A stretch of 64,000 nucleotides of DNA from Nicotiana tabacum (Eukaryota; Streptophyta; Magnoliopsida; Solanales; Solanaceae), in the NCBI RefSeq assembly GCF_000715075.1, contig NC_134082.1, positions 194,545,948 to 194,609,947 on the forward strand. The letters run 5' to 3'. The position numbers and the translations under genes are program-made. Shown one piece after another: positions 1,561-62,430 of this stretch. The notes beneath the pieces are model-generated. The model saw nothing but the letters and a program-made list of their open reading frames with translations, made no database searches and had not been told where the DNA came from. How positions within the stretch are numbered: position 1 is the stretch's first letter; every line of letters begins with the position of its first letter.

Positions 1561-1626
1561 GAACTACATTGACCTGATTCCTTTATAGCCGAGGGTATGT
1601 AGGAAACCTCGGAAGCAGGGTGCGGT
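1561..1626 (+). other. Two-hairpin intercistronic module, copy in C (before PPT)
   Basis: Starts GAACTAC and ends near GTGCGGT. Hairpin I has outer arms CTACAT (1564-1569) and ATGTAG (1597-1602), fully complementary, with the conserved TGATTC between them. Hairpin II downstream is weak here. The T/A forms in both outer arms match each other, whereas the copies between ORFs use CTACG paired with CGTAG. Confidence 0.6.
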
Positions 1627-1696
1627 AAAATCTTTCAAAAATATTTCCCACGGTGTATTCAAGCGGGCAAAAATCGCTCGTATCCGCTCACTTTAT

Positions 1697-1740
1697 CTTT
1701 GCACGAAAACTCTTCGTGTTTCCGAGCAAAGAGGGGCAGC
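1697..1740 (+). other. PPT-proximal hairpin and polypurine tract of C
   Basis: CTTTGCACGAA, loop AACTC, TTCGTG, then GCAAAG allows a stem whose distal arm overlaps the purine tract CAAAGAGGGGCAGC. The tract abuts the LTR start TGTGAGCACG at 1741. In LTR elements the PPT primes plus-strand DNA synthesis. Confidence 0.7.
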
Positions 1741-4205
1741 TGTGAGCACGTGATTTTTGTCCTATATTAATTACTCCCATAAATTCAAAACAAAATAATT
1801 TATTTTCATTATTTGCAATTTTTGTGAATTTTGTGGCATTTTCTGATAATTGTTTGCATTTGTTTGTGCATTTTCATTTTTGTTTAATTAATGAAAATAC
1901 AAAATATCACGCATTGCATTTAGGGTTTAATTTTACATTGTTTAGATTAATTAGTAAATTAGTTTGTTTTATAAAATATGAAAATCACAAAAAAAAGTAG
2001 TTCATTTTTGCATTTTTACTCTTTAATTTTGAATTTTATGGTTTTCCTTATATTTAGGATTTAATTAACTATTGTAAATACTATGATGAGTGATTAATCT
2101 AATTGGGTAGGTTAATTTAGTTTAAAATTTAATTTAGGATTTTATTTTTAATTTGAAAAGAAAGGATTTGAAATTGAAAAAGAAAAAGAATTGAAATAAA
2201 AGGAAAAACCGATTTTGGGCCGTTACAATTGAGTTTGTCCCAGGCCCAAGTGTTAAACACCCCTTAACCCAGCCCAATACCCGTCCCCTAACCCGGTCCG
2301 ACCCACCCTAAAGCCAAACGACGTCGTTTCGTTAGGCTTGATCTGAGCCGTTGATAGTTCCTAATCCAACGGATCGGAACTGATACCCCCTCCCCTGTAT
2401 ATAACTGTCCTAAATGAGTTTACCCCCTTTATCGTCTCTCTCACCCTTCCACTTCAGAGGTCAAAAGTAACCCTAATCCGTCGTCCCTATTTCCCCACTG
2501 TCTCAGCCCGGCGGTGCCGGCCCAAACCGCCTCAAAATCACACCACAGAACCACCTAGACCCCCTCTTCCCAAATCCTAGGTCCATTCCCCACGAATGTT
2601 TCCCGAGCTTCTCGAATCTTGAATCAGAGCTTGACCCTAAAAATTCCAAATTTTCCAATTCGGGGTTTTCTCAAAGTTTTAGGTTCATTCTGATGGTATC
2701 CATGTGTTTTGATAAAAAACACACGGTTAGTCTCAGATTGAGCCAAGAATCTGAGGGTTCAAAGATTCATCACCACCTTTTACGGTCCGAGGCACGTTTA
2801 GGTATTTCCATTTTTTTTTTGTTATTTGTTCTTCAGTTTTCCTCCGTTTGTTTTTCTTCTTCTACTTCAATCTCTTCTTCTGAACTCCTTTCCATTCTGT
2901 TTAGTTTCTGAAGGGTAGTTTTGTGATGCATGTTAGTTTTAAGAAAACCTTTTTCTTTAATCAGTACAATTAATCTGTTAATTAGATTAGTTCCGATTTG
3001 TTAATTTTAGTTCATCAATTGGGTTTGGAAATTGTTCGAATTGCTTCTGTTCTTTTTCGCCTCAGATAATTTGGTTTTGAGTTGGGCCTGGGGTTTGTAC
3101 CTTTAGTTTTCAGGCTCGTTGGGTTGGATTAGGCTTTGAATTAACTCAACCCAGGGTCAACTTTGACCCATTTTGGTGGTAGTTTCTGAGGTAATTAACA
3201 GGGGTGTAGAGGGTAGTTTAGGGATTCTATGGTAGGGAATATTGTTGTAACTGAATGGGAAGCTTCTAGGAAGCTGGGGTTTGGGACTATTCTGAAATTC
3301 TGAATCTTACATTAGGGGTAAGTGAGCTAAAACAAAAATTGAAAAAGGGACAAAAGGCAAAATATGATTTTCTTTAAGCTACCCTAAAAGCTTGCCTATA
3401 AAGGCATCCTAACTTGACACTCAAGTCAGAATTTCAGAGATAGAAAATCAGAAAAATTGAAACGGTGGAAATTGGGGAAATATTTCTGAATTCCTTGCAT
3501 CTCTTTGCTGAAAACTGCTCAAATTTGCTTGGTCTTAGTCTTCTAATCTTCACTACTTGGTTAAAACTATTGAAATGATAAGGTCTTACACCTGGGTTGA
3601 AGTGAATTGAATTCTAGAGCTGCAAAGGTTTTGGTTGAGTTATTTTTTGTTGTTTGGTTTACTGTTCCATTACTGGGTTGGATCTGATCTCTGTTGATGC
3701 TTCTCGTTGATTGATCTACTGCTGCTGTTCGTTTATTCCTGATCTCAAAACTAAGTTTCTGGTTCTGTCTTGCTATATTCAGGTACATGTCCTTGAATCC
3801 CTATTGATATGAGGCTCGAATTGAGGAATGAAAGGGGAACAACACTTTCAAAGCATAACATCAAACCATTTACTTATAGTTTAGTCTTATTTTCTTTCCT
3901 TCTCCCTGAATCCTTTGTTTTGATTTGTTTTGAGTGCATTATATTCTGCCATCTGTGTGCTGCACTCTTCTAAGGGCTGGGTTTGGTCTGTACTTAGCAG
4001 GGGATTCAATTTTCTCGCAAATGTCCCATAGCTGAATGCTAATTTTGACAATCTGAGCTCTCATTATCATCTTTGATCCTGAATTGGCGCGAGAGTTGGA
4101 TTAACAACTTGCTTAATCAAATCAATAGCTAGGTTCACATGCAATCATGTCAAGTAATGTGATGAGGATTACATTAGAGTTGTCTTCCTATTATAGGATT
4201 CATAT
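1741..4205 (+). mobile_element. Element C 3' LTR, left part (split by element A)
   Basis: The LTR begins TGTGAGCACGTGATTTTTG after the PPT and is interrupted at 4205/4206 by element A. It resumes at 49688. U3 includes a palindromic AAACGACGTCGTTT at 2316-2329 and AACGG/CCGTT motifs, then a TATA box (TATATAA, 2398-2404). Downstream are a short hairpin (GTGTTTT/AAAACAC, about 2703-2722), a donor-like AG|GTATTT at 2802, and an acceptor-like CAG|GTACAT at 3781-3783. Small open frames in this stretch (for example 2693-2911) lack any recognisable domain and are not called. Confidence 0.85.
4201..4205 (+). repeat. Left target-site duplication of element A (CATAT)
   Basis: CATAT directly precedes the A 5' LTR and recurs directly after its 3' LTR at 49683-49687. 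A 5-bp duplication is normal for Ty3/gypsy integration. Confidence 0.9.
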
Positions 4206-4912
4206 TGTGAGCACGTGATTTTTGTTTACGCGACGATCACTCCAAAAGAAACAAAAATAATAGCAAATGGTCTTGCTGTACAATTCTTTTGGGATTTTTA
4301 CGTGACATTTTGTTAATTATTTGTGATTTTGCCCATTGTTTTTATTAAAAACAAAATACAAAAAAATGTGTCGTGTGTAGTTGAACCATAATCCGGTTAT
4401 TAAAAGGAAAATCGCGAAAAATGCATCTTTAATTTTTTGTCATTGAGTGACGTTTAGTTTAATTAAATGTTAATTATGTGTTAATTTTTGTTTTTATAGT
4501 ATTATTTGACAAATTAATTAAGAGATTTAAGGAGAAAAGGGTTTTTGGATTGGGCCAATCCAATTTAAATGGGAACAAGCCCAAATCAAAACAACCCAGT
4601 CCAACCAGGCCCTCTGCAAGACGCCCAAACGACGCCGTATAAGCATCATCTCTTTGAGCCGTTGATTGATTCAAAGGAATGGCCCAGATCTGGTCAATCC
4701 TTTACTTAAACGACTCCGTATGAGGCCATCTAATCCCAACCGTTAATCCAATTCCATTCAACGGCCTCAGGACACGCCCATAAACCCGACCCGTTCAACC
4801 TCCAAACCAACCCAACCCCTGGCATTTGAAACGACACCGTTCCCCACCAATTGAAAGATCTTGGCCTTTCATCTCGCCTCATCTGACGGCCAGGATCTAT
4901 TCACTCATTAAC

Positions 4913-4920
4913 TATATAAA
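4913..4920 (+). promoter_or_regulatory. TATA box of A 5' LTR
   Basis: TATATAAA lies about 700 bp into the LTR, downstream of the repeated AAACGAC-type and CCGTT/AACGG motifs. A TATA box sits at the equivalent place in the LTRs of B, C and D, so transcription probably starts about 30 bp further on. Confidence 0.7.
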
Positions 4921-7900
4921 CCTAAAATTATACCCCACCCCCTATCCAAACACCCCTCCTTCGTCCTCATCCCCTTCCCAGACCCCAAACCTTAGGAACC
5001 CTAGCCGCCCCCTTTCCCCTCACCATTAATCCCGGCGGCATGGACGCCGGTGACCCCCACCTTAACACCATAGGACCGCCTTACCACCCTGAACATAGAT
5101 CTGTTGTCCCTTTGTCCTTTTGTCTCGAATCCCCTCCCACCTTCTCGAATCTTCATTTGAAGATTCGAGTCGGACCTCGACTTACACCGATCTACCCCAG
5201 TTTCACACCAGACAGTCCCCGGACCTCCCTCGTGACCAAACCATGCTTGGTTTGGTCCGAATCTAACCAGGGAAACCTAGATCCCAAATCTACCCTTAGG
5301 AACCCTAGAAGTCCTGATGCCTGGTCTGTGGCCGTTTGAACTAAATGATTAGGGTCTAATGGACCTTAATCGAAGTGTTCTCAGTAGATAACACTTCGAT
5401 TAAAGTCCATTCAACCCCAAGAAAGATCGATTTCAAATCCGAGCTGGGGTTTTCTGATTTTTCAAGGCTTTAAGGTAATTTTTGTTTTCTTTATCAGTTT
5501 ATTTTGTCTGTTATAATTGAATGTCTGTTCATATGTCCAAATGTTTCGTTTAATTTATGTTATTGAATTTTTGTCGACTGTTGTTGTCCACCTTGCCCGG
5601 ACCTCTGTATTTGGCCAAGTTCTTTCCATTTACTGATCATGTGTATGTGTGTAAGCTGTACAATCAATTGAACTTAAATTTGATTGATTAATTAATTCCC
5701 CAATACAACTTTTGCTTAGTCAGTGCAATTTGAATCGCATGTTGATACTGTTAGATTTCTGATCATTGGCTATTGTTTGTATATGTTATAATTAGCGTAG
5801 TCGATTCGATACATGTCGTCGATTAATTTCAGCTGTTTGAATGGTAACAATTTGATTTATTTCCTGCTGAACTTTGTTTGAATCAAATTGAGAATCAAGT
5901 ATAGCTACTTATAGTTGTTGATCTGAATCAGAAATTTAAGGATTTGGTTTGTTAGATGTAGTCTGAATTGGTGGCATGTGCACTTGTGCACAACATGTGC
6001 ATAAAGGCCCTTTTTGAGATGAAAAATAACTTGACAGCATGTGCTGTCAGGGCATATTCAGGCTGCCCACACCCTGAGTTGTTTAAAACTAATAAACCAT
6101 ATCTAAGTAAAAGGCTGGAAGGGGAATATCATGGGAAGGTTTATATTTAAATAGTTGAGTGGAAACTGGAAAGAGAGGAGGCCACATGGGCAGGGATTTC
6201 TAATGTGTTTAACAGGCTGTGGATAGCCTGATGCTAGGCTATAAAAAAGGAGGCAGAACTTCCATTTAGGGAGGGATTTTTCAGACTGATTTTTAGAAAA
6301 GCATAGATACAGAGAGAGATACCACAGAATAGGCATATACAGACACACATTGAGAGAGGATATATACAGATAGAGAGAGAGAGAGAGCAAAAAATAGAAA
6401 ACATACAGAAAAATCAGAAACTGTTTCTTCCTATTGTTGTTTGGATTTCATTTGTTATCAATCTTTTAAGCAGTACTGGTTCTTCCAAGTCTCAACTGAG
6501 ATTACTGGTGGTGTGTTGCATTAGTTTATTCTTGGAGTTGGTTTGTCTAGAATTCTATTCCTACTACACTTCCTACTGCTTTCGTTTAGCTACTTTTTCC
6601 ATCGGCTATAGTTGCATCTTGCACTGGGATTTGTTCTGCTGTTACCAGTTGTTACTGCTGCTGTTTCTGTTGCAATTGTTACTCTACTGACTTCTCTTCT
6701 TCTTCAATCGTAAGCACTTCCAGGTACACACTTCTGAAACCATGTGTTGTTAAAAGCTTGAAGTTTGAAGCAGAAATAAAGAAATAAATGTTGTTTACTT
6801 CACAATACTTATGTTCAAAATATAGCCATAGGTTGAATGGTAGTTGGCCTGTATTTGTTTAAGTTCATTCCAACTGCAATTGCTCTGTATGAATTAACAC
6901 ACATCCTAATTGAGATGAACTATTAGATAGTATTGTTGTTAGATCAGATGTATTTCCATGTGTATAACCATTGGGTTTGATTTAGTGATGACAGTATAAC
7001 ATAGAATCATGACAAGCATCCGTATGTACTCTTGTCTAGACCTCTGAACTATCAAATCTGTTATATCTGGTCCCATTTGATTTCAAGATAAATGTATCCC
7101 AAACAAATTCTCATGTGGTGTTACGTTAACAGGTTAACCATGTACGCCAACTCTCTTGTTAGATTCCTTGTTTCGATATAGATTCATTGTTTCGAAATAA
7201 TGCGACAATTTTGAGGAAAACTAATTTAATAGGCATAAGTTTGGGTAAGAGGTTTTGGCGCTTAGATCAAATAAATTCCCAAATGAGCATTAATAATTAA
7301 GGTTAATCCCAACACTAATAGTCGCGGACGAGTATTCGTTTGTTCACATAATCATGGGGAGTTAATTTAGCTATAGGATGATTAATCATGCTTGGATATA
7401 TTATTTCATTGTCCTCGATTTGGTTCATAATTTCTAGTAATGTTCCTTTCAATAAATGCGCGTCTCAATCTAGCATTTAATATGGTATGCCTCTTGTAAG
7501 CTTGTGACAATTTAGGATCTTTTCTCATTTATTTTAGAAAACAAAAAAAGAAAATGTAGTCGTGCTAAGATTATCCTCTTAAAAAATAATGAGACGAGCC
7601 TCGCCAAATAAAAATGCAAATTGCGGGGCCCTCAATAATTGATCATAATAAATACTTAGAATTTAGGATGGACTGTTTAGTGAATTTCACTGCCTCCCCA
7701 AAGATAATAACGCGTTAGGCTCTTTAGGCGCAACTCAATTGAAATTACATTCTTAAATCCGGGTGCACATTGATGTGACCCAAATCCAAATCTCAACGGA
7801 GTCGAAATGTGTTAACAACTACGGGTGCATTGATTGTGACGTGGTTCGAGATGCATTTTCACGACGTTGTAATTCTATAAAAATAAATGATAATAATAAA

Positions 7901-8002
7901 AGCGGCTTAAACTTAATAAAAGCACATAAGTCACAACATGTATTTAAATCAGATATTTAGCCATTATAACAATTTAAGCGACCGTGCTAGAACCACGGGA
8001 TT

Positions 8003-8027
8003 CGAGGGTGCCTAACACCTTCCCTCG
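8003..8027 (+). other. U5 covarying hairpin (A 5' LTR)
   Basis: Stem CGAGGG/CCCTCG around the invariant TGCCTAACACCTT. The stem is CGGGAA/TTCCCG in C, CGGGAG/CTCCCG in D and CGGAA/TTCCG in B, while the loop is unchanged. Confidence 0.7.
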
Positions 8028-8270
8028 GGTCAACAGAATTCCTTACTTAGAATTTCTGGTTCGCAGACTTCATTTGGAAAAGTCGAAAATTTCCTCGATT
8101 TGGGATTCTAGATAAACCGGTGACTTGGGACACCAAAACCAAACCTTTCCCAAGTGGCGACTCTGAATTAAATAAATAATCCCGTTTCGAATATTGTCAC
8201 TTAAATTGGAAAAACTCCCTCGTGCATTTATCCTTCGGGGCGGGCGCGCAAAAAGGAGGTGTGATAGCTC

Positions 8271-9336: not shown

Positions 9337-9400
9337 GAACTACGCCGGTTTGATTCTCACATGGTGTGAGATACGTAGACAACTCTCATCGGGTCCAACC
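9337..9400 (+). other. Two-hairpin intercistronic module, A before ORF1
   Basis: GAACTACG opens the module. The outer stem is CTACG/CGTAG. Between the arms an inner stem TCTCACA-TGG-TGTGAGA (seven pairs) replaces the TCACG/CGTGA stem of the copy after ORF1. The pairing is kept while the bases differ. Confidence 0.65.
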
Positions 9401-9519
9401 TCCCATTTTGCAAAAAAAAAAATCTCTTAAAAAAGATCTAGATAATTTTTTTTGAGTCTAATAAAGGTTTTTTTATTTTATTTATTATTTGGCATAATCA
9501 CCCTAAATAAATGTGCAGG

Positions 9520-11568
9520 ATGAGCACGATACAAAACGAACCTTTTTCAATAATGACCAAGATCCCTTTTGAGTTGAGATTATGGTGGAACGACTTAGGC
9601 AAGGAGGGGCAAGGCAAAGTAAGGAAATATCTGAAAGATCTCCCGGATTTACTAGACATTCAACCTCGGGGAGATATTATCAGATCATTGGTCACTTACT
9701 GGGATTCAGCGCACAATGTATTTCATTTCTCAGACTTCGAGCTCACCCCGACGTTGGAAGAAGTAGCGGGATTCATTGGGGGTGATGAAGCTCCGTTAAG
9801 GTTCAAATACTTGATTGCACCTAGGGCCGTCACAGTACACCGGTTTCTGGATTTAATAAAAATACCCCGAACATTTCACCATCCAGATCTTGCCAAAGGT
9901 TTCTGCAGTCTCCACCTCATGTATGCTAGATACGGCCACGAGAGCGGGTTCAATAAGCCGGATTTCAAACTATGTAGTAGAGGAAACCGACAAAAGTGGG
10001 ACGGACACAGGCTGTTAGCTTTTATGACAGCCTTCTTGGGTCTTATAGTGTTCCCAAGGAAGGACGGAAACATCGATCTAAAAGTAACTGGGGTCGTCAG
10101 TACGTTGCTCACCCAAGATAAAAGTACTCTGGCGCCTATGATTATGGCTGACATTTTTCGGGCTCTCACTGCTTGCCGAGCCAAAGCCGGCTTTTTCGAA
10201 GGATGCAACCTTCTATTGCAAATGTGGATGACCGATCATTTATGCCACCGCTCTCCGCTCTTGGGTTACGGTTCGCCCGAAAAAACTTGTATTGGAGAAT
10301 TCTACACGAGAATCAAAGGGTTCAGCCTACCCGAAGGAGTCACAGCATGGACTTCATTTCTCCGAACTCTCACTGCCAACCAAATCCACTGGACGCTCGG
10401 ATGGTTACCCGTTGAGGAAATCTTATGCATGCCGGCAACCAGGCCTCACTTTCTGTTAATAGGACTTAAAAACATCCAACCCTATGCACCGTATTGGGTT
10501 TTGAGGCAACTTGGGAGGTATCAAATAGTACCCAAAGATGAAGATCTGAGTACTCAAGTGATTGAAATCAGCCCGGACGGTCATTTCCCCGAAGAGGAAG
10601 TTCGCCAAATCTGGAGCGAGTCCCAACATCTGACAGCAAGCACTTGTGTGATGGATACAACAAAAGGGGAAGTTACCCCAGGGTATCACGCTTGGTTCAG
10701 AGGTGACCTGTCTTGCGAGAGATCAGCTAAGAGACCTCATCTCAAAGATTTCGTCGAGTCATCCCAAGGGAAATGGAACTGGTTAGCAAGAGAAAAGGGG
10801 TATCGGGCAGACATCGGTGATTTGAAGCTACAAATTGACAGTTTGAAATTCAATAACAGCATACAAATCGCTACGGATCGAAGCGAAAAGAATAGATTGA
10901 TCCAAGAGAATGAAGAACTTAAGGCCCAAATCCAAGAATTGAGATTGGCTCTTGATGAACAACCCAGAAGTCAATCAGACAAGCAGTTGATAAAAGGTTT
11001 GAAAATAGAAGTCAGGGAATGGCGAGATGGTTTAGAAGAATTTGAAAATGTCATGGCAGAACTCAAAGGACAGTGGGGTACAAGAACAGATAAGCATCGT
11101 CGATACTTGAACCAACTGAAACGTGACCACGAGAAAACTGTTGCTAAAATGAAGAGAGAGATGGCTACACTTGAGGTTAAAGCAGCTAAACGGGCCGAGG
11201 ATTTCCAATTTGAGAGCAGATACTGTTACGACCTGTTGGCCCAAATGAAGACAGAAGTGCGGCAACTGAAAAATCGGCATACACAAGATTCTCAAGTTTT
11301 AAAAATGTGCAGTGATAAGATGAAACGCCTGCTCATAGAAAAGAAACAAACCAGAGATAGGATCAAGGCCATCGCCCACGCCATCATCAGACGATGTCTA
11401 CGGTGTGAGAACATGACCAGCGTTACCATTCTCTCGGCAGTAATGTGTTATGTCAAGCAGACCATGAACGAACTGGAGCAACTTGAGAGGGATCTCACAC
11501 CTAGGACCGCGGCAAGGCCGAACGATGCCTCGCGGGCACCAATTTTCAAAACCTTAATGTATTCATAA
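9520..11568 (+). CDS. ORF1 of element A (Ogre-type extra ORF, intact)
   Basis: A 682-codon open frame upstream of gag. I start it at the ATG at 9520 rather than 9511. A splice-acceptor-like CAG ends between the two, and the ORF1 of B starts with the same Met-Ser-Thr. The first roughly 400 residues form a globular region with a Trp-Trp near the start, the motif LTPTLEEVAGFIG near residue 80, and conserved blocks shared with B and D. The LTPTLEE-type motif recalls the plant mobile domain of transposon-derived proteins; I infer that and cannot test it here. From about residue 430 to 630 the sequence is rich in charged heptads and looks like a long coiled coil. The biochemical role of this ORF in Ogre elements is not established. 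It is the only intact ORF1 in the window. Confidence 0.8.
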   Translation: MSTIQNEPFSIMTKIPFELRLWWNDLGKEGQGKVRKYLKDLPDLLDIQPRGDIIRSLVTYWDSAHNVFHFSDFELTPTLEEVAGFIGGDEAPLRFKYLIAPRAVTVHRFLDLIKIPRTFHHPDLAKGFCSLHLMYARYGHESGFNKPDFKLCSRGNRQKWDGHRLLAFMTAFLGLIVFPRKDGNIDLKVTGVVSTLLTQDKSTLAPMIMADIFRALTACRAKAGFFEGCNLLLQMWMTDHLCHRSPLLGYGSPEKTCIGEFYTRIKGFSLPEGVTAWTSFLRTLTANQIHWTLGWLPVEEILCMPATRPHFLLIGLKNIQPYAPYWVLRQLGRYQIVPKDEDLSTQVIEISPDGHFPEEEVRQIWSESQHLTASTCVMDTTKGEVTPGYHAWFRGDLSCERSAKRPHLKDFVESSQGKWNWLAREKGYRADIGDLKLQIDSLKFNNSIQIATDRSEKNRLIQENEELKAQIQELRLALDEQPRSQSDKQLIKGLKIEVREWRDGLEEFENVMAELKGQWGTRTDKHRRYLNQLKRDHEKTVAKMKREMATLEVKAAKRAEDFQFESRYCYDLLAQMKTEVRQLKNRHTQDSQVLKMCSDKMKRLLIEKKQTRDRIKAIAHAIIRRCLRCENMTSVTILSAVMCYVKQTMNELEQLERDLTPRTAARPNDASRAPIFKTLMYS

Positions 11569-11981
11569 GTCGAGTTTGTATCTTAGCATCAGGGTTCATT
11601 TAGTCTGTTTGAGTCTAGGTTTATTTTTCAAGTGGTGTTTTCTTTTCAAGAATGTTTGTTTGTAACAGATCATTTCAGTAATAAAATGTGTGTTTCTTTT
11701 ACGCTCATCTGTTTTGAACTACGTAATGATCTGATTCACGTGGCATCGTGATACGTAGGCAATCCTCATCGGATCCGGTCGCGGTTTAACCAAAGAGAAA
11801 AATTGAAAAAAAGGGAAAATAATAAAAGGGAAGCCTAAAAAGAATGCCGGAATGACGCATGCTTTCATCGCAAACATGTAGGAATCCATTTAACTGTATA
11901 GGTGCATCATGCCCCAACGTGAGATTGCCTATCTGTTATTTGATCCGAATTAAACGTTCGTTTGTCGTTGAGTTCCTCCAG
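11569..11981 (+). other. ORF1-gag spacer of element A
   Basis: Holds a two-hairpin module (11716-11780), then A-rich sequence, and ends at an acceptor-like CTCCAG (11976-11981). The frame downstream of that acceptor is open in the gag frame right up to the gag ATG. I see no separate gene. Confidence 0.6.
11716..11780 (+). other. Two-hairpin intercistronic module, A between ORF1 and gag
   Basis: Outer stem CTACGT/ACGTAG, inner stem TCACG/CGTGA with loop TGGCAT. A second hairpin follows, ATCC/GGAT with loop TCATC. It lies between two ORFs, as do the copies in B (38755-38817) and D (62367-62430). Confidence 0.75.
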
Positions 11982-12125: not shown

Positions 12126-15100
12126 ATGTCTTCAGAAATTCCGTTGCCAACAATCCCTGTTTCCGAGGAGAGTTCGATCTCGGCCGTCCTCACGCCCCAG
12201 TCCGCAACTGCGAAGGAAAATAGAATCCTGCGGCTCCGCATGTTGGAAATGCTGGATGACTGGAATAACGGAAAAGAGCCGCCAAGTGTCGTCCTTGGAT
12301 TCCCTGAGTTATTCTCCAGAACAAGCGGGACTTCTAATGTCCCCATAAGCTATCCGGCTACCCCGTTCAGATACCTAGCCATTTCGGCCTTCTCTGCTGG
12401 ATCGCCCTCTGATTCTTATCCCCGAGTGTCAACAACGGATGTAAACGCAAACATCTTTACTGCACCACCCTGCCCGATCACGGCATAACCCGCTGCATAC
12501 AAGCAAAATTTTGACTCATCCTCGTTTACATTCCAAGCACCGTCTTTCTCAATGGAACCAACTCGGTTCGTCACTAGCACTCATCCTCCACAGCCTCAGT
12601 ACGAGTGTACACCTGTGCAGGATCAGAACCCCAAAATGGCTGAACAAGAAGAGATGGCCAAAAGAATAAGAAGTCTTGAGCAGAGTTTAAAGAACATGCA
12701 AGGTTTGAGCGGACAGAAAAGCGTCTCCTACACCAATCTATGCATGTTCCCTCACGTGCACCTACCAGTGGGTTTCAAGACCCCAAAGTTTGAGAAGTAC
12801 GATGGGCACGGTGACCCCATTGCTCATCTCAAGAAATATTGCAACCAATTGCGGGGAGCCAGCAGAAAAGAGGAACTACTAATGGCATATTTTGGGGAAA
12901 GTCTGGTAGGGATAGCCTCAGAATGGTATATGGACCAGGAAATGTCCCGATGGCATATATGGGATGATCTCGCCAGAGATTTTGTGAGGCAATTCCAGTA
13001 TAACATCGACATTGCACCAGACCGAAATTCTCTGTCGAACTTGAAAAAGAAACCTTCAGAAAGCTTCAGAGAATATGCTATTAAGTGGTGCGAGCAGGCG
13101 TCGAGGGTGAAGCCTCCCATGGACGAGGTGGAAATGGTCACTACTTTTCTCCAGGCTCAAGAGTCCGACTATTTCCAAAACATGATGTCAACCATGGGAA
13201 AACCATTTGTAGAGGCGATTAAGATTGGAGAGATGGTGGAGAATGGTCTGAAAACGGGTAGGATTCTGAGTCAGGCAGCCATAAGGGCAACCTCCCAAGC
13301 CATCCAAAGCAGGTCCGGAGGAATGGCAAGAGGAAAGAAAAAGGAAGAAACGGCCATGGCAGCATCAGAAGCAAGGGAATATCGTAATCCCAGGCCCCGT
13401 TTTCCAGAAAGGACCCCACAACACTACTACCCCCACCAAAGTGTGGCATATGCTCCTCAACCCTACATGGTTATGAACACCCAACCTTATGTCCATCCGC
13501 CGCAGCAAGCCAATCGAGGCCAAGCTCCACCTCCCAGAAATCAGCCTCTATACCGCAACCACTACAACCCACAGCCTCATCAAAATATTCTCCGCCCTCA
13601 GGAACCACCTAGAAGGTGGACTTTCACGCCCATCGGTGAGCCATACTCTACTTTGTTCCCGAAGCTAGTCCAGTTGGGTTTCCTGCAGCCAGTCCCTCAG
13701 ACAAGGCACAACCCGGCGTCACCTTCTTACAAAGCCGGTGTCAGATGCGCCTATCATTCAGGGGCGGAGGGACACGATACAAATGACTGCTGGGCATTGA
13801 AAAGAGTGGTCGAGAATTTAATAGAGCAAGGGAAAATAGTGCTAAGGGACGAGGAGGTCCGAAATGTGACTAACAATCCATTACCTGCTCACAATAATGG
13901 GCCGCTGATCAGAATGATTTGCGAAGACAAAGAATTTGACCCTGATTTGAAAGCTATAATCGCCATTGTCGACGCAGGGAAAAAGCCTGAAACAGCCCAG
14001 AAACCAGAAAAAGGGGAAAGGGCTAGTACTGTAAAGTGCGAGCCCTAAAAGAAGGTGGAGAAAAAGGCGGTGCCTGTGAAGAATGGAGTTCTTTACATCC
14101 CACGAGGTCGAGCAGAGAAGCCGCAGAGCTTCGAGGTCAAAAGGGCAAAACCTATGTACATACCAAAGGGGGCCTATGTGGTCCGGGGGACGATTCAACC
14201 ACCTCGGCTGAATGAGCCAGTGGTTATCGGACGCGTGCCGCAAAAGCCGATGACAAACCCGTCCACAGTACCGTGGAACTATCGGAGAACGTTGGTAACG
14301 TACAAAGGTAAAGAAGTCACGGGGGAACTTCCGGAAAATACTTTCATTGGAAGGTATTCAAACACCCAAGAGCTGAACAACGCCACACAGAGACACTTCC
14401 CACCAAAGAAGCCTGTGAGCGTTGAAGAAGCGGAATTTTTCTTCCAACAAATGAAAATGCCAGACTACGAAGTAGTAGATCAACTGCGCAAGTGCCCTGA
14501 GCAAGTGTCCATGCTATCTCTGCTAATGAGGTCAACCGAGCATCAAAAGATCTTACTCAAGACCCTGAACGAAGCATACGTACCAGTTGAAACCTCAGTT
14601 GAACAACTGGAACGGATGACGGAGAGGTTCTTTTCCATCAACCAAGTCTCTTTCAGCAAGAACGATTTACCCCCAGAGGGAGCGGCACACAACAAAGCCT
14701 TGTATCTAACAGTTAAATGCGAAGTCTACTACGTCAAGCGGGTAATGTTGGATGGGGGTTCAGGTGCTGACATTTGTCTGCTCTCCACACTACAGAGAAT
14801 GGAAATTGGGACCGAAAGAATCCGCCCCAATAATGTCTGCGTGAGGGCTTTTGACCGCATCAAGAGAGACACCCTTGGGGAAATAGATTTGATACTGACC
14901 ATAGGGCCAGTGGAGTTTGAGGTAACTTTCCAAGTGCTTGACATGGATACATCCTACAATTTCCTCCCCGGCAGACCTTGGATTCATGCGGCGGGAGCTG
15001 TGCCTTCCACTCTTCACCAGATGGTGAAGTTTGAGTACGAAGACCGAGAGATTGTGGTCCATGGAGAAGACGAGCATGCTATTTATCGGGACCCATCCAT

Positions 15101-15862: not shown

Positions 15863-18800
15863 TTATAATAATGCGGCTTTAAATATGACATGCTTGCGGA
15901 CTTCACGCCCAGATCACAGCGAGCTATTTAATTGTGAAATAATGAACCCAGAACCAGAATATGATGAAGAAGAGGCTTTTAGGGAAATAAACCGAGAATT
16001 GGAACATTTTGAGAATAAACCTAAGCCAAATCTGAATGACACCGAACCGGTTAATTTAGGAACTCCTGAAGAAATCCGAGAGACCAAAATAAGCATTCAC
16101 ACGGACAAGAAAATGCGGGACGCGATAATTCAACTCCTTTTTGAGTTTAAAGATGTGTTTGCTTGGTCATACGATGACATGCCAGGACTAGGTATTGATC
16201 TAGTGGTTCATAAATTGCCAATTCACCCTGATTGTCCTCCAGTTCAACAAAAGCAACGAAAGTTCAAAACTGAGGTCAGTGACAAGATTAAAGAGGAGAT
16301 CACCAAGCAGCTAAAAACGGGAGTGATTCGGATAGTCCAGTATACAACATGGTTGGCAAATGTGGTTCCAGTGCCGAAAAAATATGGGAAGACTCGGGTA
16401 TGTGTGGACTATCGAGACCTGAATAGAGCGAGTCCCAAAGATAATTTCCTATTACCCAACATCCACATCCTTGTTGATAATTGCTCCAAACATGAGATCC
16501 AGTCTTTCGTAGATTGTTACGCTGGGTATCATCAGGTGTTGATGGATGAAGGAGACGCCGAGAAGACTGCCTTCACCACGCCTTGGGGCACTTACTGTTA
16601 TCGGGTCATGCCATTTGGTCTGAAGAATGCTGGGGCAACTTACATGAGAGCCATGACTGCCATTTTTCATGACATGATGCATCAAGAAATAGAGGTGTAC
16701 GTGGACGATGTGATAATCAAATCCAGGATGCAGGATAATCACTTCCAAGACTTGAGGAAGTTCTTCGAGAGACTGAGGAAGTACGACTTGAAGTTGAACC
16801 TAGCCAAATGTGCTTTCGGAGTCCTATCGGGAAAGCTTTTGGGCTTCATAGTAAGCAGGAGAGTATCAAATTAGATCCAACAAAGATAAAATCCATCAGA
16901 GATCTACCTCCCCCAAGAACGAAGAAAGACGTGATGAGTTTGTTGGGCAGGTTAAATTATATCAGTCGATTCATTGCCCAGCTGACGAGCACGTGTGATC
17001 CCATATTCAAGCTATTGAGGAAAGATGCGGCGATCAAATGGACGGCCGAATGTCAAGAAGCTTTTGACAAAATTAAAGAATATCTTTCAAATCCCCCGGT
17101 TTTGGTCCCACCAAAGCCAGAGAGACCACTGTTCTTGTACCTCACAGTCTTGGAAAATTCTTTCGGTTGCATCCTCGGGCAACATGAAATGACCAGAAAG
17201 AAGGAGCAAACAATCTACTACTTGAGCAAGAAATTTACCGCCTACGAGGCCAAGTATACTCTGCTGGAAAGAACGTGTTGCGCTTTGACGTGGGTGGCTC
17301 AGAAACTGAGACATTATCTCCAAGCTCACACTACTTTCCTCATAAGCAGTCTGGATCATTTGAAGTATATATTTCAGAAACCAATGCCTACTGGGAGACT
17401 AGCCAAGTGGTAAATCTTGCTTACTGAATTCGACATAGTCTATGTCACCCGCACGACAATGAAAGCCCAGGCGCTAGCAGATCATTTGGCCGAAAACCTA
17501 GTCGATGAGGAATATCAGCCTTTGAGTACCTATTTTCCATATGAAGAAATAAACACCGTAGAAGTGGTCTCGGAAAACGCCCATGTTTGGAAGATGTTCT
17601 TTGATGGAGCCGTAAACGCCAAAGGTGTAGGAATTGAGGCAATTTTGATATTGCCCTCTGGTCAGCATTATCCGGCCACAGCTAGACTACGTTTCTTTTG
17701 CACAAACAATACAGCTGAGTATGAAGCCTGCATCATGGGCATGCATATGGCGATCGATCAGGATGTCGAAGACTTATTGATTATGGGAGATTCTGACCTG
17801 ATTATCCGGTAAGCCCAAGGTGAATGGGAAACTCGGGATGTCAAGCTTATCCCTTACCGACAGCACGTGGAGGACCTCGGCAAGCGTTTTAAATCAATAG
17901 AGTTCAGGTATATCCCACGATGTCATAATGAACTAGCAGATGCACTTGCTACCTTGGCTTCGATGCTACCCTACCCAGGCAACGCCCACGTCGATCCCTT
18001 GGAAATCCAAATCAGGGAAAGACACGGCTACTGCAACGCAATCGAGACAGTATCGAATACGCAGCCATGATACCATGATATCAAGAGGTTCCTGAAAACA
18101 CAAGAATACCCCGAGCATGCTACTGGAGATCAAAAGAGAACCATTAGACGACATGCAGGTGGTTTCTTTTTGAGAGGTGAGTTGCTGTATAAGAGGACCC
18201 CGGACCTCAATCTACTAAGATGTGCTGACGCCGAGGAGGCAAGAAGGATCATGCACGAAGTACACGCAGGAGTGTGCGAACCTCACATGAACGGGTATGT
18301 TTTAGCGAAGAAAATCCTTCGAGCAGATTATTACTGGATGACCATGGAAAAGGACTGCTTTAGCTTCGTTCGGAAGTGTCATCAGTGTCAGGTGAACGTT
18401 GATTTGATTCATGCACCTCCCACGGAATTGCATCCCATGTCTGCACCTTGGCCATTTGTTGCCTGGGGCATGGACGTCATTGGTCCGATCGAGCCGAAGG
18501 CCTCAAATGGACATAGATTTATACTGGTTGCCATCGACTACTTCACAAAATGGGTAGAGGCTGTCACTCTCAAGTCGGTCACCAAAAAAGCTGTAGCGGA
18601 TTTCGTACATTCAAATCTTATTTGTCGTTTTGGTATTCCTGCAACTATCATCACAGATAACGCAGCAAACCTGAATAGTCACTTGATGGGAGATGTATGC
18701 GAGCAATTCAAAATAACGCATAGGAATTCCACTCCTTACCGGCCCAAGGCCAATGGCGCTGTAGAAGTAGTAAACAAGAACATCAAGAAGATTTTGAGGA

Positions 18801-19315
18801 AGACGATCCAAAATTCCCGACAGTGGCATGAACAACTACCCTTTGCATTGTTGGGATATCGCACTACGTTACGTACGTCAGTAGGGGCAACCCCTTATCT
18901 TTTGGTTTATGGGACAGAGGTTGTGATACCAGCAGAGGTGGAAATCCCTTCGCTCCGAACCATTGTCGAAGCCAAAATCGAAGATAGCGAGTGGGTCAAG
19001 ACTCGATTAGAGCAGTTGACTTTGATTGACGAGAAACGAATGGCTGCAGTTTCTCATGGGCAGCTGTACCAACGAAGAATGGCCCGTGCTTACAACAAGA
19101 AAGTCCGACCCAGGAATTTCGAAGTAGGTCAACTGGTACTGAGGCACATTCTGCCCTATCACCAGGAAGCAAAAGGGAAATTTGCCCCAAACTGGAAAGG
19201 ACCATACATCATTAGGAAGATATTGCCAAGAGGAGCATTGTACCTAGGTGATATTGAAGGAAATGATCCCGAAACAACAGTGAATGCGGACACAGTCAAA
19301 AGATACTATGTCTGA
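15863..19315 (+). pseudogene. pol: pol of element A: RT, RNase H, integrase (decayed)
   Basis: Encodes reverse transcriptase with YVDD at 16698-16709, RNase H with an FFDGA block near 17600, and an integrase zinc-binding HHCC region near 18265-18390. The integrase core shows WGMDVIGPIEP near 18465 and TDN near 18654. Breaks: a one-base frameshift near 16851, TAA at 17411-17413, TAA at 17810-17812 and TGA at 18068-18070. After the frameshift everything stays in one frame to 19315. By comparison with B the nonsense codons correspond to Gln or Trp codons changed by a single transition. The second integrase motif reads TDNAANL where B has TDNGANL. These lesions should abolish a full-length product. 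Confidence 0.9.
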
Positions 19316-19469: not shown

Positions 19470-19530
19470 GAACTACGTCTGACTTGATTCCGAAAGGATA
19501 CGTAGGCAGCCTCTCCCTGAGGTTCAGTCA
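19470..19530 (+). other. Two-hairpin intercistronic module, A after pol
   Basis: Outer stem CTACGT/ACGTAG. The inner stem is TTCC-GAAA-GGA with a GAAA tetraloop. The second hairpin is CCTC-TCC-CTGAGG or close to it. It lies 155 bp after the pol stop, as in B (31101-31159). Confidence 0.7.
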
Positions 19531-19710
19531 CACCAACAATAAAATCCCATTTACCCTGAAATTGAAACCGGGGCACGTCAAGCGGCTTAGAAGTCGTAGT
19601 ATCATCTACTTTTCTTTGCCAAGCACAAGCCTTTCAGATCAATTACCAAAGGTAACGGGAAGCCAAAAGCGTCACGAATGGAGACCGGTACACTGTAAAT
19701 TGAGAGAAAT

Positions 19711-29020: not shown

Positions 29021-29027
29021 GATCCTT

Positions 29028-38476: not shown

Positions 38477-38754
38477 ACTTTCGGGTATTGGTCCTTTTGA
38501 TCTCGTGTGATAATGATAATATGCCAGTATACTCTTTAGAGAAACTAACTGCTTGAATTCTGGAAATGAACAAACTTGTTAGTTTTGAGAGTTTAACACA
38601 TATATAATTACGCGTTGAGATGCAATGCTCCTAGACAAATAACCCATTTCTATTATGCATTTGCTTAGCTGCTTGTGTCATCCCAGCTTTTCTTGGTCTT
38701 TTATTGTTGTTTACTCTTATTTTATTTTCTTATATACATTTTTATTGTATTGTG

Positions 38755-38817
38755 GTCGAATCTTATAGAGATTGCCTACGTATCATGCCCCCGCATGAAT
38801 CAGACCTTGCGTAGTTC
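38755..38817 (-). other. Two-hairpin intercistronic module, B between ORF1 and gag
   Basis: On the minus strand the outer stem is CTACG/CGTAG and the inner stem TCATGC-GGGG-GCATGA. Hairpin II is AATCT/AGATT. Position and form match the copies in A (11716) and D (62367). Confidence 0.75.
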
Positions 38818-38996
38818 GGACATAAGGCAAACACTTTTATTCATTATACAAAGATGGAACAGACATTACATTTGAAAACCTTTATAAGAAAATGGTTTGA
38901 AACACACACACTCAAATCAAAATAAAAGATACAACTCTTAACATCTCACAACATGCCCCACTTTCCACTTTTGTTGTTAATCATTGGATTATCTGC

Positions 38997-41818: not shown

Positions 41819-41835
41819 CCCCAGCAGAGTCGCCA
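41819..41835 (-). other. Primer-binding site of B (tRNA-Arg type)
   Basis: On the minus strand TGGCGACTCTGCTGGGG, four bases (GCTC) after the LTR end. It differs from that of D by one transition. Confidence 0.88.
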
Positions 41836-41839
41836 GAGC

Positions 41840-44800: not shown

Positions 44801-46444
44801 CAATAAGAATTTACAAAACAACTAATCGACGAACTTAATCGAGTCGATTACACATATTATAAACAATCATAATCAACAGAAACAATAGTATAATTCTGAT
44901 CAAATAGACGGGTATGAGACAGAATCACGGAATCAACTAAACAAATATGAAAACCTACACCAGCTACTGAAACAGGCAACAATATATACATAGAATATAA
45001 AAAGAAATAGGAAAAATACCTTTGAATCTTTAAATTCACACGGACACAGGGTCGACTTGGACTTGGACCTTTTGAGGCTGAACAGACTTTATTCGAAGTA
45101 TTCTCAACTGAGAATACCTCAATTAAAGTCTCTTAGACCTCAATCCCTCACTTGAATTAGACAAATTCCATGACTGGAAATTTTTAGGGTTTCGGATTTT
45201 TTGATTTCAAATCCGAACGTTTCTAGGTATATTCGAATCAAACCAATGGTATTCTAGGCACGAGAGAGGTCAGGTGGGTAACTGGTGTGAGTTTGAGGTA
45301 GGTTGGGATAGGGTCAGGTTTCACTCGAATCTTCAAATGAAGATTCGAGCAGTTCCAGGAGGATTCGAGCCATGCTACTAACAGATCCGTGGTGAGGGTA
45401 TTTAGGGGAAGCTGTGGTGTTATTTTGGAGGCCATTGGAGAAGATAAGGTTTTCAGGCCAACCTTCGATTTAAGATTCGAAGAGTTGCGGCCTGATTCGA
45501 AGGAAACTAATGCCAGATCCGTGAAGAGGAGGTTGTGAGGAGTCTGGGGTGTTAAGGTGGTGACCGGCGGCATTGTTGCCGCCGGGTTTCAGGCAATGGG
45601 GAATGAGGGCGGCTAGGGTTAGGGGTGTGTTTTTTCCGGAGATGATGATGAATAGTGGAGAGGGGGGGTGTTTAGTTAGGGGGGCGGGGTAGGGATTTGG
45701 ATTTATATAGGGATGGGGTGGATTGATTTCATCCGTTGGATCAATTAAGATGCACGGTTGAGATCAATTCATTTAACCAAACGATGTCGTTTGGTTAAAT
45801 GTTGGGGTCAGGCTGGATCGGGGCAGTGGATCGGGTAGGGGGTTACGGGTAAGGGTGATGAGATCTCAGCCGTTGGATTGATTTGATCCAACGGCCCTTG
45901 ATGAAATGTGACAAAACGATGTCGTTTGGTTTGATTAAATTGGACTGGTCATGGGGTGTTTGGATTGGGCTGAGGGGGTTTGATTTGTTTTGGGCCTTCC
46001 TTTTCAATTAATTGGCCCAGTCCGTTTTTGCCTATTATTTTCCACTCTTTTTAATTTCCAATTTAATTATAAAAATCCTAATTAAAATTATAAAAACAAA
46101 AAATTAACTTTACAAGACATTAATCAACCTTTAACAACTATTAACTCATAGACAAAACGTTAATCACACAGTGAAACATTAAAACTAGAATAAATGCATA
46201 ATTTTTGTGATTTTCTTTGAATTAACTTTTAAATGCATAATTAAATCCTAACTATGCATGCAACATGTGTTTTTTTTATTTTATTTTTTCATTTTAACAA
46301 ACAAAGTAGACATTTACGGACATAACACAAATATTTAATAAACGCCACACAAATTCTAAAAATTGCACCCTAAGCAAAAATTGTTTTATATTTTTTTGAA
46401 TTATTTTGGAGTAATTTTTGTGAAGCAAAAATCACGTGCTCACA
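41840..46444 (-). mobile_element. Element B 5' LTR
   Basis: A complete LTR ending in the regular CA on the element strand. The start is TGTGAGCACGTGATTTT. It has a TATA box (45702-45709), a stem-loop near 45085-45130 with arms of the GTATTCTC/GAGAATAC type, a donor-like AG|GTATTT near 45019 and an acceptor-like CAG|GTACAT near 43730. The U5 stem is at 42057-42081 and a PBS-like motif at 41931-41942. It differs from the 3' LTR by an extra roughly 45-bp duplication near 43000-43050 and by about 25 bp near 45085-45110 that are absent in the other copy. Confidence 0.94.
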
Positions 46445-59598: not shown

Positions 59599-59602
59599 GC
59601 TC

Positions 59603-60164: not shown

Positions 60165-62153
60165 ATTGGGGGCAGAAATGGGTCATTAAGTATTTGGGAT
60201 CTCTCACAGATATTATGAAAGTTAAACCACGCGATGATTTGATTACGGCACTAGTGACTTTTTGGGACCCTGTTCACAATGTCTTTCGCTTCTATGATTT
60301 CGAGCTTAGTCCCACATTAGAAGAAATAGTTGGATATTCCAGTTTTGACGGAGATTTGAGAAATCAGAATCTTGTCTTTCCAAAGGCTCCCTCAGTACAT
60401 CGATTCTTTGGTCTTCTGAATATCAGTAATCAAATCAAAAAAAGCAACGTTGTCAAAGGGTGTTGTTCTTTCAACTTCCTACATTCAAGGTTCGGAAAGC
60501 CGGATGGATTTGAAATTCATGAAAAGGGCCTTACTAACAAACAAAACAAGGGCACCTGGCAGATTCACCGACGCTTCGCTTTCATGGTGGCTTTTCTAGG
60601 AATCATGGTCTTCCCAAATAAAGAGCGGACGATTGATATTCGCATAGCCAGAGTCGTACAAGTCCTCACTACCATAGAACATCACATTCTTGCCCCGATC
60701 ATTCTATCAGACATTTATCGGGCGTTGACTTTGTGTAAATCCGGGGCAAAATTCTTCGAAGTTTGCAATATTTTGTTGCAAATGTGGTTGACTGAACATC
60801 TCCGACATCACCCCAAGTTCATGCAGTATGGTCCAAGCAAGGAAAATTTCATTGAGAGTTATGAAGAAAGAATAAAAGATTATAAATCTCCAGAAGGGGT
60901 GGAAGCCTGGATATCCCATTTAAGATCTTTAATGGCGAGTCAAATTGAGTGGACTTTGGGATGGCTCCCGGTAAGAGAGGTGATACACATGTCAACCTTG
61001 AAGAGTTATTTGCTGCTGTTGGGTTTAAGAAGCGTCCAGCCGTATGCACCACAGAGAGTTCTAAGACAGCTAGGGAGATACCAAGTGGTGCCTGATGATG
61101 AATATTTGAGTGCGCAAGTGATTGAACTACACCCTGAAGCCACTCTCCCTGATGCTTTAATCCAGCGGATTTGGAATGGTTGTCGATACTGGGAAGATGA
61201 TACCCAAGTTACAGATCCTGCGAAAGGCGAGATAATCCGGGTTATGCTAGGTGGTTTGAGAAAAGATCCCGTCTGGATGATGCACCAGAACCTGATCCTA
61301 GAAGGCCCATAAAAAGACCGCATGTTCAAGCCTTTGATGACAAAATCCAAGAACGGTTGGCTTGGGGTGAAAAGGAAAAGGGGTACAAAGCAACTATTCA
61401 TACCTTAGAAGAAAGCCTGAGGAACCTCAATTTGGAGAAAGACTTACAGGCACAAGAAGTAGAAGGTGAAAAGAAGAGTCTGATTAGCGGGAATAAAACT
61501 CTCCGCACTCAGTTTCAATATATGAAGAAAGCCTCTGAAGCGCCAGTGAGAAGTTTGAAAGATCGGAAAATCATTGTCAATCTGATGAAAAAAATGCAAG
61601 ATTATGACTCCATTTTGACAAAGACTGAAAGGCCTTAGACAAAGCTAAGGAAAAAATCTTACAGCTAAATGAGGAGGCCAAATCAAGTAAGGAACACCAA
61701 GTAATGAGATTCGAAGAAGAAATGGCTCAATTCAAGAGAGAGAAGGACCATTGGATACATTCAGAAGCTCAACTTCATGCACAGTTAGAAGAAATGAGAA
61801 GGTATAATAGAGAACATCAGCACGCAGATATTGATAGGGAGAGAGCACAGGCAAGACTCGATCAATCCAGACTTCGAGCTCAATTAGAGTCAGCTTTAGA
61901 TTGTGAAGACCACATAAGAGATATAGCCACCACTCGCCAACAGCGATTGCAAAACCAAGACCAAAATCTCCAAGATTTCAGAGCACAAATCCATGATTTG
62001 GCTGTTTATACTTCTCAAAGTTACGTGAACTGCCAAGGGATGGATTATGAAAGGTTTCTAGAGCATGCACCTACTTTTGCTCGTCATATTGCAATGGAGT
62101 TAGAGAGGATGTACCGTACACTAGGAGGTCAGCCGGGTCAAGCCCCACCGTGA
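60165..62153 (+). pseudogene. ORF1 of element D (5' deleted and frameshifted)
   Basis: Homologous to ORF1 of B from the KWV(V/I)K(H/Y)LG block on, without the start codon region. The frame runs to about 61245, shifts, continues at 61357-61638, shifts again, and ends at 62153 with the same C-terminus as B (ERMYRTLGG). The globular part and the Glu/Arg/Gln-rich coiled-coil part are both recognisable. It cannot give an intact product. Confidence 0.88.
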
Positions 62154-62366
62154 GCAGATGTTCCAGTGATTAAAAGTAAAAGATTGTGGAGTGAAACGTA
62201 GTCATAGTTATTGGAACTTTTCATATAATAGTCATGTTTTAGTTTAAGTCCATGTTGAGTCTTTTAAACCATTTTCTTAAAGTATTGTCCAAATGTAATG
62301 TCATTTCTGTCTTTGTACTGTTTTGTTTGTTAAAATAAATAAAAGTATTAATAATTGTTTCCACCA

Positions 62367-62430
62367 GAACTACGCTCGGTCTGATTCATGCAGGGTCATG
62401 ATACGTAGGCAATCTTCATAAGATTCGACC
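62367..62430 (+). other. Two-hairpin intercistronic module, D between ORF1 and gag
   Basis: Outer stem CTACG/CGTAG, inner stem TCATG-CAGGGT-CATGA, second hairpin AATCTT-CAT-AAGATT. All stems are fully paired. Confidence 0.78.

What the first reader, a model, noticed from the sequence alone, without database searches (positions are those of the whole stretch)
1561..62430. A two-hairpin RNA module recurs nine times at ORF junctions of four nested elements, with compensatory changes
Copies lie at 1561-1626, 9337-9400, 11716-11780, 19470-19530, 22862-22930 and 62367-62430 (plus strand), and at 28528-28596, 31101-31159 and 38755-38817 (minus strand). Each begins GAACTAC, holds TGATTC, and returns with ATRCGTAG or ATATGTAG. 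Outer stem: CTACG(T)/(A)CGTAG, or CTACAT/ATGTAG before the PPT. The inner stem varies but always pairs: TCTCACA/TGTGAGA, TCACG/CGTGA, TCATG/CATGA, TCATGC/GCATGA, TCC/GGA. A second hairpin follows: AACCTTTG/CAAAGGTT, AATCTT/AAGATT, ATCC/GGAT, CCTC/GAGG. The places are the ORF1-gag gap, after pol, before the PPT and, in A, before ORF1. Elements with long polycistronic RNA could use this for translation restart, RNA processing, export or packaging. I know no named family for it. The function is inference; the repeated pairing is visible.
Basis: partly seen in the sequence, partly recalled or inferred. Interest (0 to 1): 0.88.

Follow-up and report, generated by a model that had tools for sequence, protein, structure and literature searches.

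The report
Repeated pseudoknot RNA in plant retrotransposons
Giant plant jumping genes carry the same small knotted RNA structure at several gene boundaries, and stripped-down copies with no recognisable genes still keep it, which suggests a handling tag on the element's RNA; what reads the tag is unknown.

Summary
All nine copies are real: the next best covariance-model hit in the window scores 11.9 bits against 59.8 or more. In 107 distinct copies it is 98.1% paired and all four pairs change on both sides, although the aligning model contained no pseudoknot. Against a phylogeny-preserving null, the six best of 1830 column pairs all belong to the pseudoknot or the two hairpins; two have E below 0.05. 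The host genome (4.0 Gb) has 56,266 exact matches to the core pattern and 0 to its reversed control. The elements are Ogre-like Ty3/gypsy. Derivatives without recognisable coding sequence keep three modules in order. That argues against translation restart and for a cis-acting tag on the genomic RNA, most likely for export or packaging. Rfam has no match; no title or abstract listed in my paper searches describes it. The structure is well supported; the function is inference. Other species could not be tested.

The parts
1561..1632 (+). module, element D, before PPT; pseudoknot strands 1571-1574 and 1624-1627 (GACC/GGTA, one pair broken)
9337..9405 (+). module, element A, before ORF1; pseudoknot strands 9347-9350 and 9397-9400 (GGTT/AACC)
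11716..11785 (+). module, element A, between ORF1 and gag; pseudoknot strands 11728-11731 and 11777-11780 (GATC/GGTC)
19470..19534 (+). module, element A, after pol; pseudoknot strands 19481-19484 and 19526-19529 (GACT/AGTC)
22862..22934 (+). module, element A, before PPT, about 110 nt before the 3' LTR; pseudoknot strands 22872-22875 and 22926-22929 (GACC/GGTC)
28524..28596 (-). module, element B, before PPT, about 110 nt before its 3' LTR; pseudoknot strands 28583-28586 and 28529-28532 (GACC/GGTC)
31097..31159 (-). module, element B, after pol; pseudoknot strands 31145-31148 and 31102-31105 (GACC/GGTC)
38749..38817 (-). module, element B, between ORF1 and gag; pseudoknot strands 38803-38806 and 38754-38757 (GGTC/GACC)
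62367..62435 (+). module, element C, between ORF1 and gag; pseudoknot strands 62378-62381 and 62427-62430 (GGTC/GACC)
9511..11568 (+). ORF1 of element A (DUF7745 / plant mobile domain)
12552..14048 (+). gag part of element A (Retrotrans_gag)
15885..19315 (+). RT, RNase H and integrase parts of element A, in several open pieces
31350..34802 (-). RT, RNase H, second RNase H-like domain (RVT_3) and integrase of element B, one open frame
4206..8264 (+). 5' LTR of element A (its 3' LTR is 23044-23867 plus 46445-49680, split by element B)
23868..46444 (-). element B, inserted in A's 3' LTR; LTRs 23868-28414 and 41840-46444

Best explanation
The module is a cis-acting RNA element, 61-74 nt as spanned by the model, in the sense transcript of Ogre-like LTR retrotransposons. 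SHOWN by sequence: an H-type pseudoknot (outer stem P1 of 5 bp, a 2-4 nt loop, pseudoknot stem of 4 bp) with one hairpin (P2) inside P1 and a second (P3) between P1 and the pseudoknot's 3' strand. It recurs in three or four position-specific copies in the two elements seen whole: before ORF1 (in some lineages), between ORF1 and gag, after pol, and about 110 nt before the 3' LTR. Non-autonomous derivatives without recognisable coding sequence keep it. INFERRED: the copies are recognition sites for a protein, from the element or the host, that marks the very long unspliced genomic RNA for nuclear export and/or packaging. It would work like the repeated post-transcriptional elements of some retroviruses and the transport elements of mouse IAP and MusD. 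I put the structure at about 0.95, cis-acting use of the genomic RNA rather than translation of its ORFs at about 0.65, and export ahead of packaging only slightly.
For: Pseudoknot: 98.1% of 427 cells paired in 107 distinct copies, all four pairs with changes on both sides; whole structure 95.4% paired versus 83.9% shuffled and 22-38% when slid. The aligning model R1 had no pseudoknot, so this was not fitted. 98 of 107 copies have all four pairs standard, in 13 letter combinations (my tally from the table). Phylogeny-preserving null: ranks 1-6 of 1830 pairs are PK, P2, P3, PK, P2, PK. Within the pseudoknot, G-U departures outnumber A-C 15 to 4, as expected if the sense RNA is what folds. Module more alike than both 120-nt flanks in 130 of 133 pairs of copies. 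Present after an integrase only about 60% identical in amino acids (L007). Seven stretches (L037, L038, L042-L046) give no match of 40 or more residues (E up to 1e-5) to the window's ORF1, gag, protease-region, RT, RNase H or integrase pieces, yet hold the before-ORF1, ORF1-gag and after-pol modules in order. In that family module identity is 0.93, 0.98 and 0.96 versus 0.888 for the rest.
Against: No experiment and no expression data. The seven coding-less stretches are one related family, so they may be one event, and I chose them through their modules; a search not based on the module did not complete. Some non-module windows in that family are nearly as conserved (0.968 versus 0.977), and its before-ORF1 module (0.93) is less conserved than those windows. 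Elements B and C lack a before-ORF1 copy, so four are not required. P1 has almost no changes, partly because the search patterns fixed its letters, and shows covariation at its innermost pair only, at rank 23. In P1 and P2 G-U does not outnumber A-C (6:9 and 8:8). Only two pairs reach E below 0.05 under the strict null. The fourth pseudoknot pair (13 with 86) ranks 199 there. Export, packaging, stability and decay cannot be told apart here.
Confidence: 0.5

Rival explanations
1. Packaging signal: Gag (or ORF1 protein) binds the repeated pseudoknots to select the genomic RNA for the particle; export is not involved.
For: Derivatives without recognisable genes would have to be packaged in trans, and they keep the modules. 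In Ty1 a 5' pseudoknot holds a major Gag-binding site (PMC4974528, passages seen).
Against: The same passages say a role of the Ty1 pseudoknot in encapsidation could not be demonstrated. Ty1 needs only its terminal regions in cis, whereas here copies lie all along the RNA.
Confidence: 0.22
2. RNA stability or decay element: a pseudoknot downstream of the ORF1 and pol stop codons shields the RNA from nonsense-mediated decay or stops a 5'-3' exonuclease, perhaps making subgenomic RNAs.
For: In elements A and B the ORF1-gag modules begin 148 and 180 nt after the ORF1 stop and the after-pol modules 155 and 191 nt after the pol stop. Such elements are known in retroviruses and plant viruses (recalled).
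Against: Does not explain the copy before ORF1. Coding-less derivatives would gain little from it.
Confidence: 0.15
3. Translation restart, or internal ribosome entry for the next ORF.
For: Two of four places precede an ORF; in element A the first ATG after the before-ORF1 module is ORF1's own, 105 nt on.
Against: In L049 seven ATGs lie between the module and the first ATG of the long gag-pol frame; L050, L051 and L053 also have ATGs before the next ORF. The after-pol and before-PPT copies precede none of the element's known protein genes. Coding-less derivatives keep the modules.
Confidence: 0.06
4. Self-cleaving ribozyme: strand order P1, pseudoknot, hairpin, P1', hairpin, pseudoknot' is that of the HDV-like double pseudoknot.
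For: Same strand order (the HDV order is recalled).
Against: No Rfam ribozyme match, even relaxed. The inner hairpin loop is variable and the unpaired GAA before P1 is conserved, unlike HDV-like ribozymes (features recalled). Cutting the genomic RNA three or four times would stop its reverse transcription.
Confidence: 0.03
5. DNA-level palindrome or protein site (ACGT core), with the pairing incidental.
For: P1 is nearly invariant and contains an ACGT core on its 3' side.
Against: The pseudoknot, P2 and P3 change letters while keeping pairing. The pseudoknot's G-U to A-C asymmetry points to the sense RNA, though P1 and P2 show no such asymmetry.
Confidence: 0.03

Closest known systems
MusD transport element (MTE) and IAP RNA transport element of mouse LTR retrotransposons (PMC12786077, passages seen)
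   Same: Structured cis-acting RNA in an LTR retrotransposon transcript; MTE also has a pseudoknot.
   Different: Mouse; acts through the NXF1 pathway; repeated copies along the RNA are not mentioned in the passages seen; no sequence relation was examined; export not tested for this module.
Direct-repeat elements flanking src in Rous sarcoma virus and the constitutive transport element of Mason-Pfizer monkey virus (recalled, no call)
   Same: Repeated or 3'-proximal structured elements at gene junctions that act on unspliced RNA after transcription.
   Different: Animal retroviruses; other sequence and fold (recalled); function of the plant module unproven.
Ty1 5' pseudoknot (PMC4974528, passages seen)
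   Same: Pseudoknot in genomic RNA of an LTR retrotransposon, bound by Gag.
   Different: Long-range, at the 5' end; required for efficient reverse transcription (title of its reference 68); not described there as repeated along the RNA.
HDV-like self-cleaving ribozymes (recalled)
   Same: Order of strands: P1, pseudoknot, hairpin, P1', hairpin, pseudoknot'.
   Different: No Rfam match; no conserved active-site loop; conserved unpaired GAA upstream of P1.

Membership tests
Ogre-type Ty3/gypsy (Tat) LTR retrotransposons, as hosts of the module | Extra ORF1 upstream of gag; a second RNase H-like domain; tandem repeats in the 3' UTR (ORF1 and RNase H features recalled) | tested here: met
   ORF1 hits DUF7745/plant mobile domain; B pol has RVT_3 beside RT_RNaseH; about 45-bp arrays in the 3' regions of A, B and D. 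Tandem repeats in Ogre 3' UTRs are as reported (PMC7004042, passages).
Ogre-type Ty3/gypsy (Tat) LTR retrotransposons, as hosts of the module | Intron between protease and RT domains, PBS for tRNA-Arg (recalled) | not tested
   Neither the intron nor the primer-binding site was tested.
Known Rfam RNA family | Match to one of 4227 covariance models | tested here: not met
   0 matches in the window at gathering score. 20 of 40 small loci at relaxed threshold gave one match, snoR86, 24 bits against a cut-off of 40, on the strand opposite to the module.
tRNA / tRNA-derived SINE relic | tRNA gene fold recognised by ARAGORN | tested here: not met
   0 in the window, 0 in 40 loci. Diverged relics could be missed; no SINE library was searched.
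HDV-like ribozyme | Nested double-pseudoknot strand order (recalled) | tested here: met
   Strand order seen in alignments A1 and A3.
HDV-like ribozyme | Match to the family model, active-site loop | tested here: not met
   No Rfam match; the inner length of the P2 hairpin varies from 2 to 10 nt.
HDV-like ribozyme | Self-cleavage | not testable with these tools
   Needs an in vitro transcript.
Constitutive transport element (CTE/MTE/DR-like) | Promotes export of unspliced RNA | not testable with these tools
   Needs a reporter assay.
Constitutive transport element (CTE/MTE/DR-like) | Conserved RNA structure kept outside coding sequence, in cis | tested here: met

The most novel reading that the evidence does not exclude
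A new RNA family: a pseudoknot placed like punctuation at the gene boundaries of giant plant retrotransposons. It would be the first export/packaging tag described for plant LTR elements, read by an element protein such as ORF1 or Gag, and hijacked by parasitic derivatives without genes that keep the tags.
Probability: 0.35. Interest if true: 0.85.

Novelty: new variant of a known kind. Interest (0 to 1): 0.7.

Why it matters
Ogre-type elements make up a large share of some legume genomes (45% of Lathyrus sativus according to PMC7004042, passage seen). [quoted passage not shown] A defined element of about 70 nt, repeated and covarying, with tens of thousands of natural copies in one genome, makes that question testable with a reporter.

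Tried and rejected
Tried without result: Rfam at two thresholds. tRNA search. Pattern scans of viral contigs gave 1 and 4 stretches. L001 falls in what I read as a tRNA gene of a viral contig (sequence; not run through a tRNA finder). With R1, L001 reached 16.4 bits and L003 8.7; L002, L004 and L005 gave no match. A scan of the GTDB prokaryote contigs with a longer pattern gave 0. A scan of viral contigs with B's pol protein, in the hope of elements from other plants, gave 0. So conservation beyond this genome is untested.

Rejected: two hairpins without pseudoknot, because the pseudoknot pairs covary as strongly as P2. Translation restart as main role. tRNA relic. Ribozyme, mainly because the genomic RNA must stay whole. 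My first covariation run, with P3 not re-registered, put 6 named pairs in the top 8 of 2145; I rely on the run with P3 re-registered.

Results against: no G-U excess in P1 or P2. No before-ORF1 copy in B and C. P1 invariance is partly built in, since the pattern fixes GAACTAC, TGATTC and TACGTAGG. In one search the P1 3' letters were free; by my reading of its listing (capped, 47 distinct sites) 43 of 47 kept GTAG.

How copies were chosen, and rows left out: the 20 stretches were picked by eye from the first places (capped list, all on contig C1). Ten had closely spaced listed modules, one (L037) had a single listed module, and nine were taken for other spacings or families. L056-L072 are all 17 sites that I did not yet hold. 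L073-L094 were picked by eye for varied 5' strands, before I had seen their 3' strands. One search was given 70 sources. Left out were L001-L005 (viral contigs), loci whose module lies in a stretch that was given (L008, L009, L011-L016, L020, L021, L025-L029, L032-L035), L095 (same copy as L046:3816), and L019 by oversight (its strands GGTT/AACT pair). 115 matches became 107 distinct rows.
Full report
WHAT WAS CHECKED. The nine copies exist as stated. A covariance model with only nested stems, built from them (R1), returns those nine from the window with filters off, at 59.8-81.4 bits; the tenth of 26 listed matches has 11.9 bits. The core pattern GAACTAC-(6-14)-TGATTC-(4-24)-TACGTAGG has 28,544 forward and 27,722 reverse exact matches in the 3,996,098,646-base host assembly, and none when read backwards.

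WHERE IT SITS. Pfam hits show ORF1 with DUF7745/plant mobile domain, gag, RT, RNase H, a second RNase H-like domain in B, and integrase. With long LTRs and about 45-bp tandem arrays in the 3' regions, these are Ogre-like Ty3/gypsy elements. Element A (LTRs 4206-8264 and 23044-23867 + 46445-49680) has four modules: before ORF1, between ORF1 and gag, after pol, and about 110 nt before its 3' LTR. B (23868-46444, minus strand, inside A's 3' LTR) has the last three. C has the ORF1-gag copy and D the one before the PPT; both elements are cut by the window ends. The leaders of B and C show no before-ORF1 copy even with filters off. Of the 30 genome loci L006-L035, 6 have an integrase end upstream of the listed module (L007, L012, L017, L022, L024, L031), 5 have ORF1 upstream and gag downstream (L011, L018, L023, L032, L035), and 4 have the ORF1 start downstream (L006, L019, L033, L034). 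The other 15 have no coding hit, or gag or protease-region hits only (at most five hits per locus shown; my classification). L007 belongs to a lineage whose integrase is about 60% identical to A's.

THE STRUCTURE. In the alignment of the nine the four letters after the outer stem and the four after the second hairpin can pair fully in eight of nine copies while differing between copies: GGTC/GACC, GACC/GGTC, GGTT/AACC, GACT/AGTC, GATC/GGTC. The ninth (1561) has one broken pair. I then collected copies from the genome: 68 matches in 31 loci, and finally 115 matches (107 distinct) in 70 sources. On one search's alignment, made by a model without the pseudoknot, the pseudoknot is 98.1% paired with both-side changes at all four pairs; P1 is 97.9% and P2 96.7% paired. 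The two P3 pairs in that model are 79.5% paired. The whole structure is 95.4% paired, against 83.9% for shuffles (0 of 500 as high) and 22-38% for slid partners. The number of pairs with both-side changes is not above shuffles (8 against 7.6; 273 of 500 reach it), but the cells with such changes (298 against 105) and the covariation score (0.423 against 0.197) exceed all 500. On the smaller set of 61 distinct rows the pseudoknot is 98.8% paired. P3, registered by a script, averages 4.21 of 5 pairs versus 3.91 for shuffled arms (largest of 500: 4.01).

Because related copies inflate such counts, I wrote a phylogeny-preserving null in the manner of R-scape (tree from the alignment itself, parsimony changes re-dealt to branches, APC-corrected G statistic). 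With P3 registered, the six best of 1830 column pairs are PK, P2, P3, PK, P2, PK, with E of 0.015, 0.025, 0.09, 0.27, 0.365 and 3.6 over 200 null alignments. So the ranking is clear, but only two pairs pass 0.05: few independent changes exist within one genome. The fourth pseudoknot pair, nearly always G-C, ranks 199. P1 shows covariation only at its innermost pair (G-C 87, A-U 12, G-U 3, A-C 4, T-C 1), rank 23.

Loop lengths fit an H-type pseudoknot: 2-4 nt between P1 and the pseudoknot strand, with both hairpins placed in the other loops. Within the pseudoknot G-U departures outnumber A-C 15 to 4, but not in P1 (6:9) or P2 (8:8).

CONSERVATION. Among copies at the same place in different elements, the module is more alike than both 120-nt flanks in 65 of 66, 21 of 21, 36 of 36 and 8 of 10 pairs. 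I picked representative copies for each class: 12, 7, 9 and 5.

THE CODING-LESS DERIVATIVES. Eleven 10-kb stretches were picked, ten of them for closely spaced modules. Seven (L037, L038, L042-L046) give no translated match of 40 or more residues (E up to 1e-5) to the window's ORF1, gag, protease-region, RT, RNase H or integrase pieces; four (L036, L039-L041) keep only gag and protease-region matches. All eleven hold before-ORF1-, ORF1-gag- and after-pol-type modules in that order (types assigned by their letters). In the seven, the longest stop-free sense stretch from the first of these modules to 600 nt past the last is 138 residues; their modules are 0.93, 0.98 and 0.96 identical against 0.888 elsewhere. 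Near L038 a before-PPT copy lies 3.8 kb downstream on the same strand (C1:1255187, listing); that it belongs to the same element is inferred. Against coding elements such as L049, L051 and L053, several of L043's matches end at module edges. The seven are related, so this is one family, and selection through modules is a bias I could not remove. LTR pairs of these derivatives were not established, so that they are non-autonomous LTR elements is inferred from order and similarity.

MECHANISM. A structure kept at its places when recognisable genes are gone acts in cis on the RNA, not on the translation of those genes. Spacing to the next start codon is also irregular, with several ATGs in between. 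Export and packaging are two cis needs that a helper-dependent RNA shares with a full element; both have precedents with pseudoknots (MusD MTE and Ty1; passages of PMC12786077 and PMC4974528). I lean to export because copies are spread along the RNA and one lies just before the PPT, as in some retroviruses (recalled). This step is inference.

NOVELTY. Rfam 15 has no match. Paper searches by motif letters and by topic listed no paper whose title or shown abstract describes it. I saw passages of three listed papers and did not read the others. The 2008 Ogre splicing paper is not held. I recall, from no call, similar letter strings in other plant sequences; this is a lead, not evidence.

Noticed in passing
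window 335-1356, 20900-22091, 28900-29828: About 45-bp tandem arrays lie between the after-pol module and the before-PPT module in A and B, and upstream of the before-PPT module in D; the modules bracket the hypervariable 3' UTR.
   Followed up: partly
L043 4438-4735, L044 6800-7089: Two before-ORF1-type modules in tandem, 229 and 221 nt apart, in two related coding-less elements.
   Followed up: no
L055 3511-8093, L030 685-1568: Another family with a distinct module whose pseudoknot strand TACC leaves one mismatch, about 0.8-1.2 kb before an ORF1-gag-type module; only fragmentary coding in L055.
   Followed up: no
window 23868-46444: Element B sits in A's 3' LTR; the flanking LTR halves overlap by 5 bases, as expected of a target-site duplication.
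   Followed up: yes
window 19985-20572 (minus strand): A 195-codon open frame antisense to element A, after pol; not examined further.
   Followed up: no
L066 6-116 (+): Weak snoR86 similarity (24 bits, cut-off 40) on the strand opposite to the module; probably chance.
   Followed up: no
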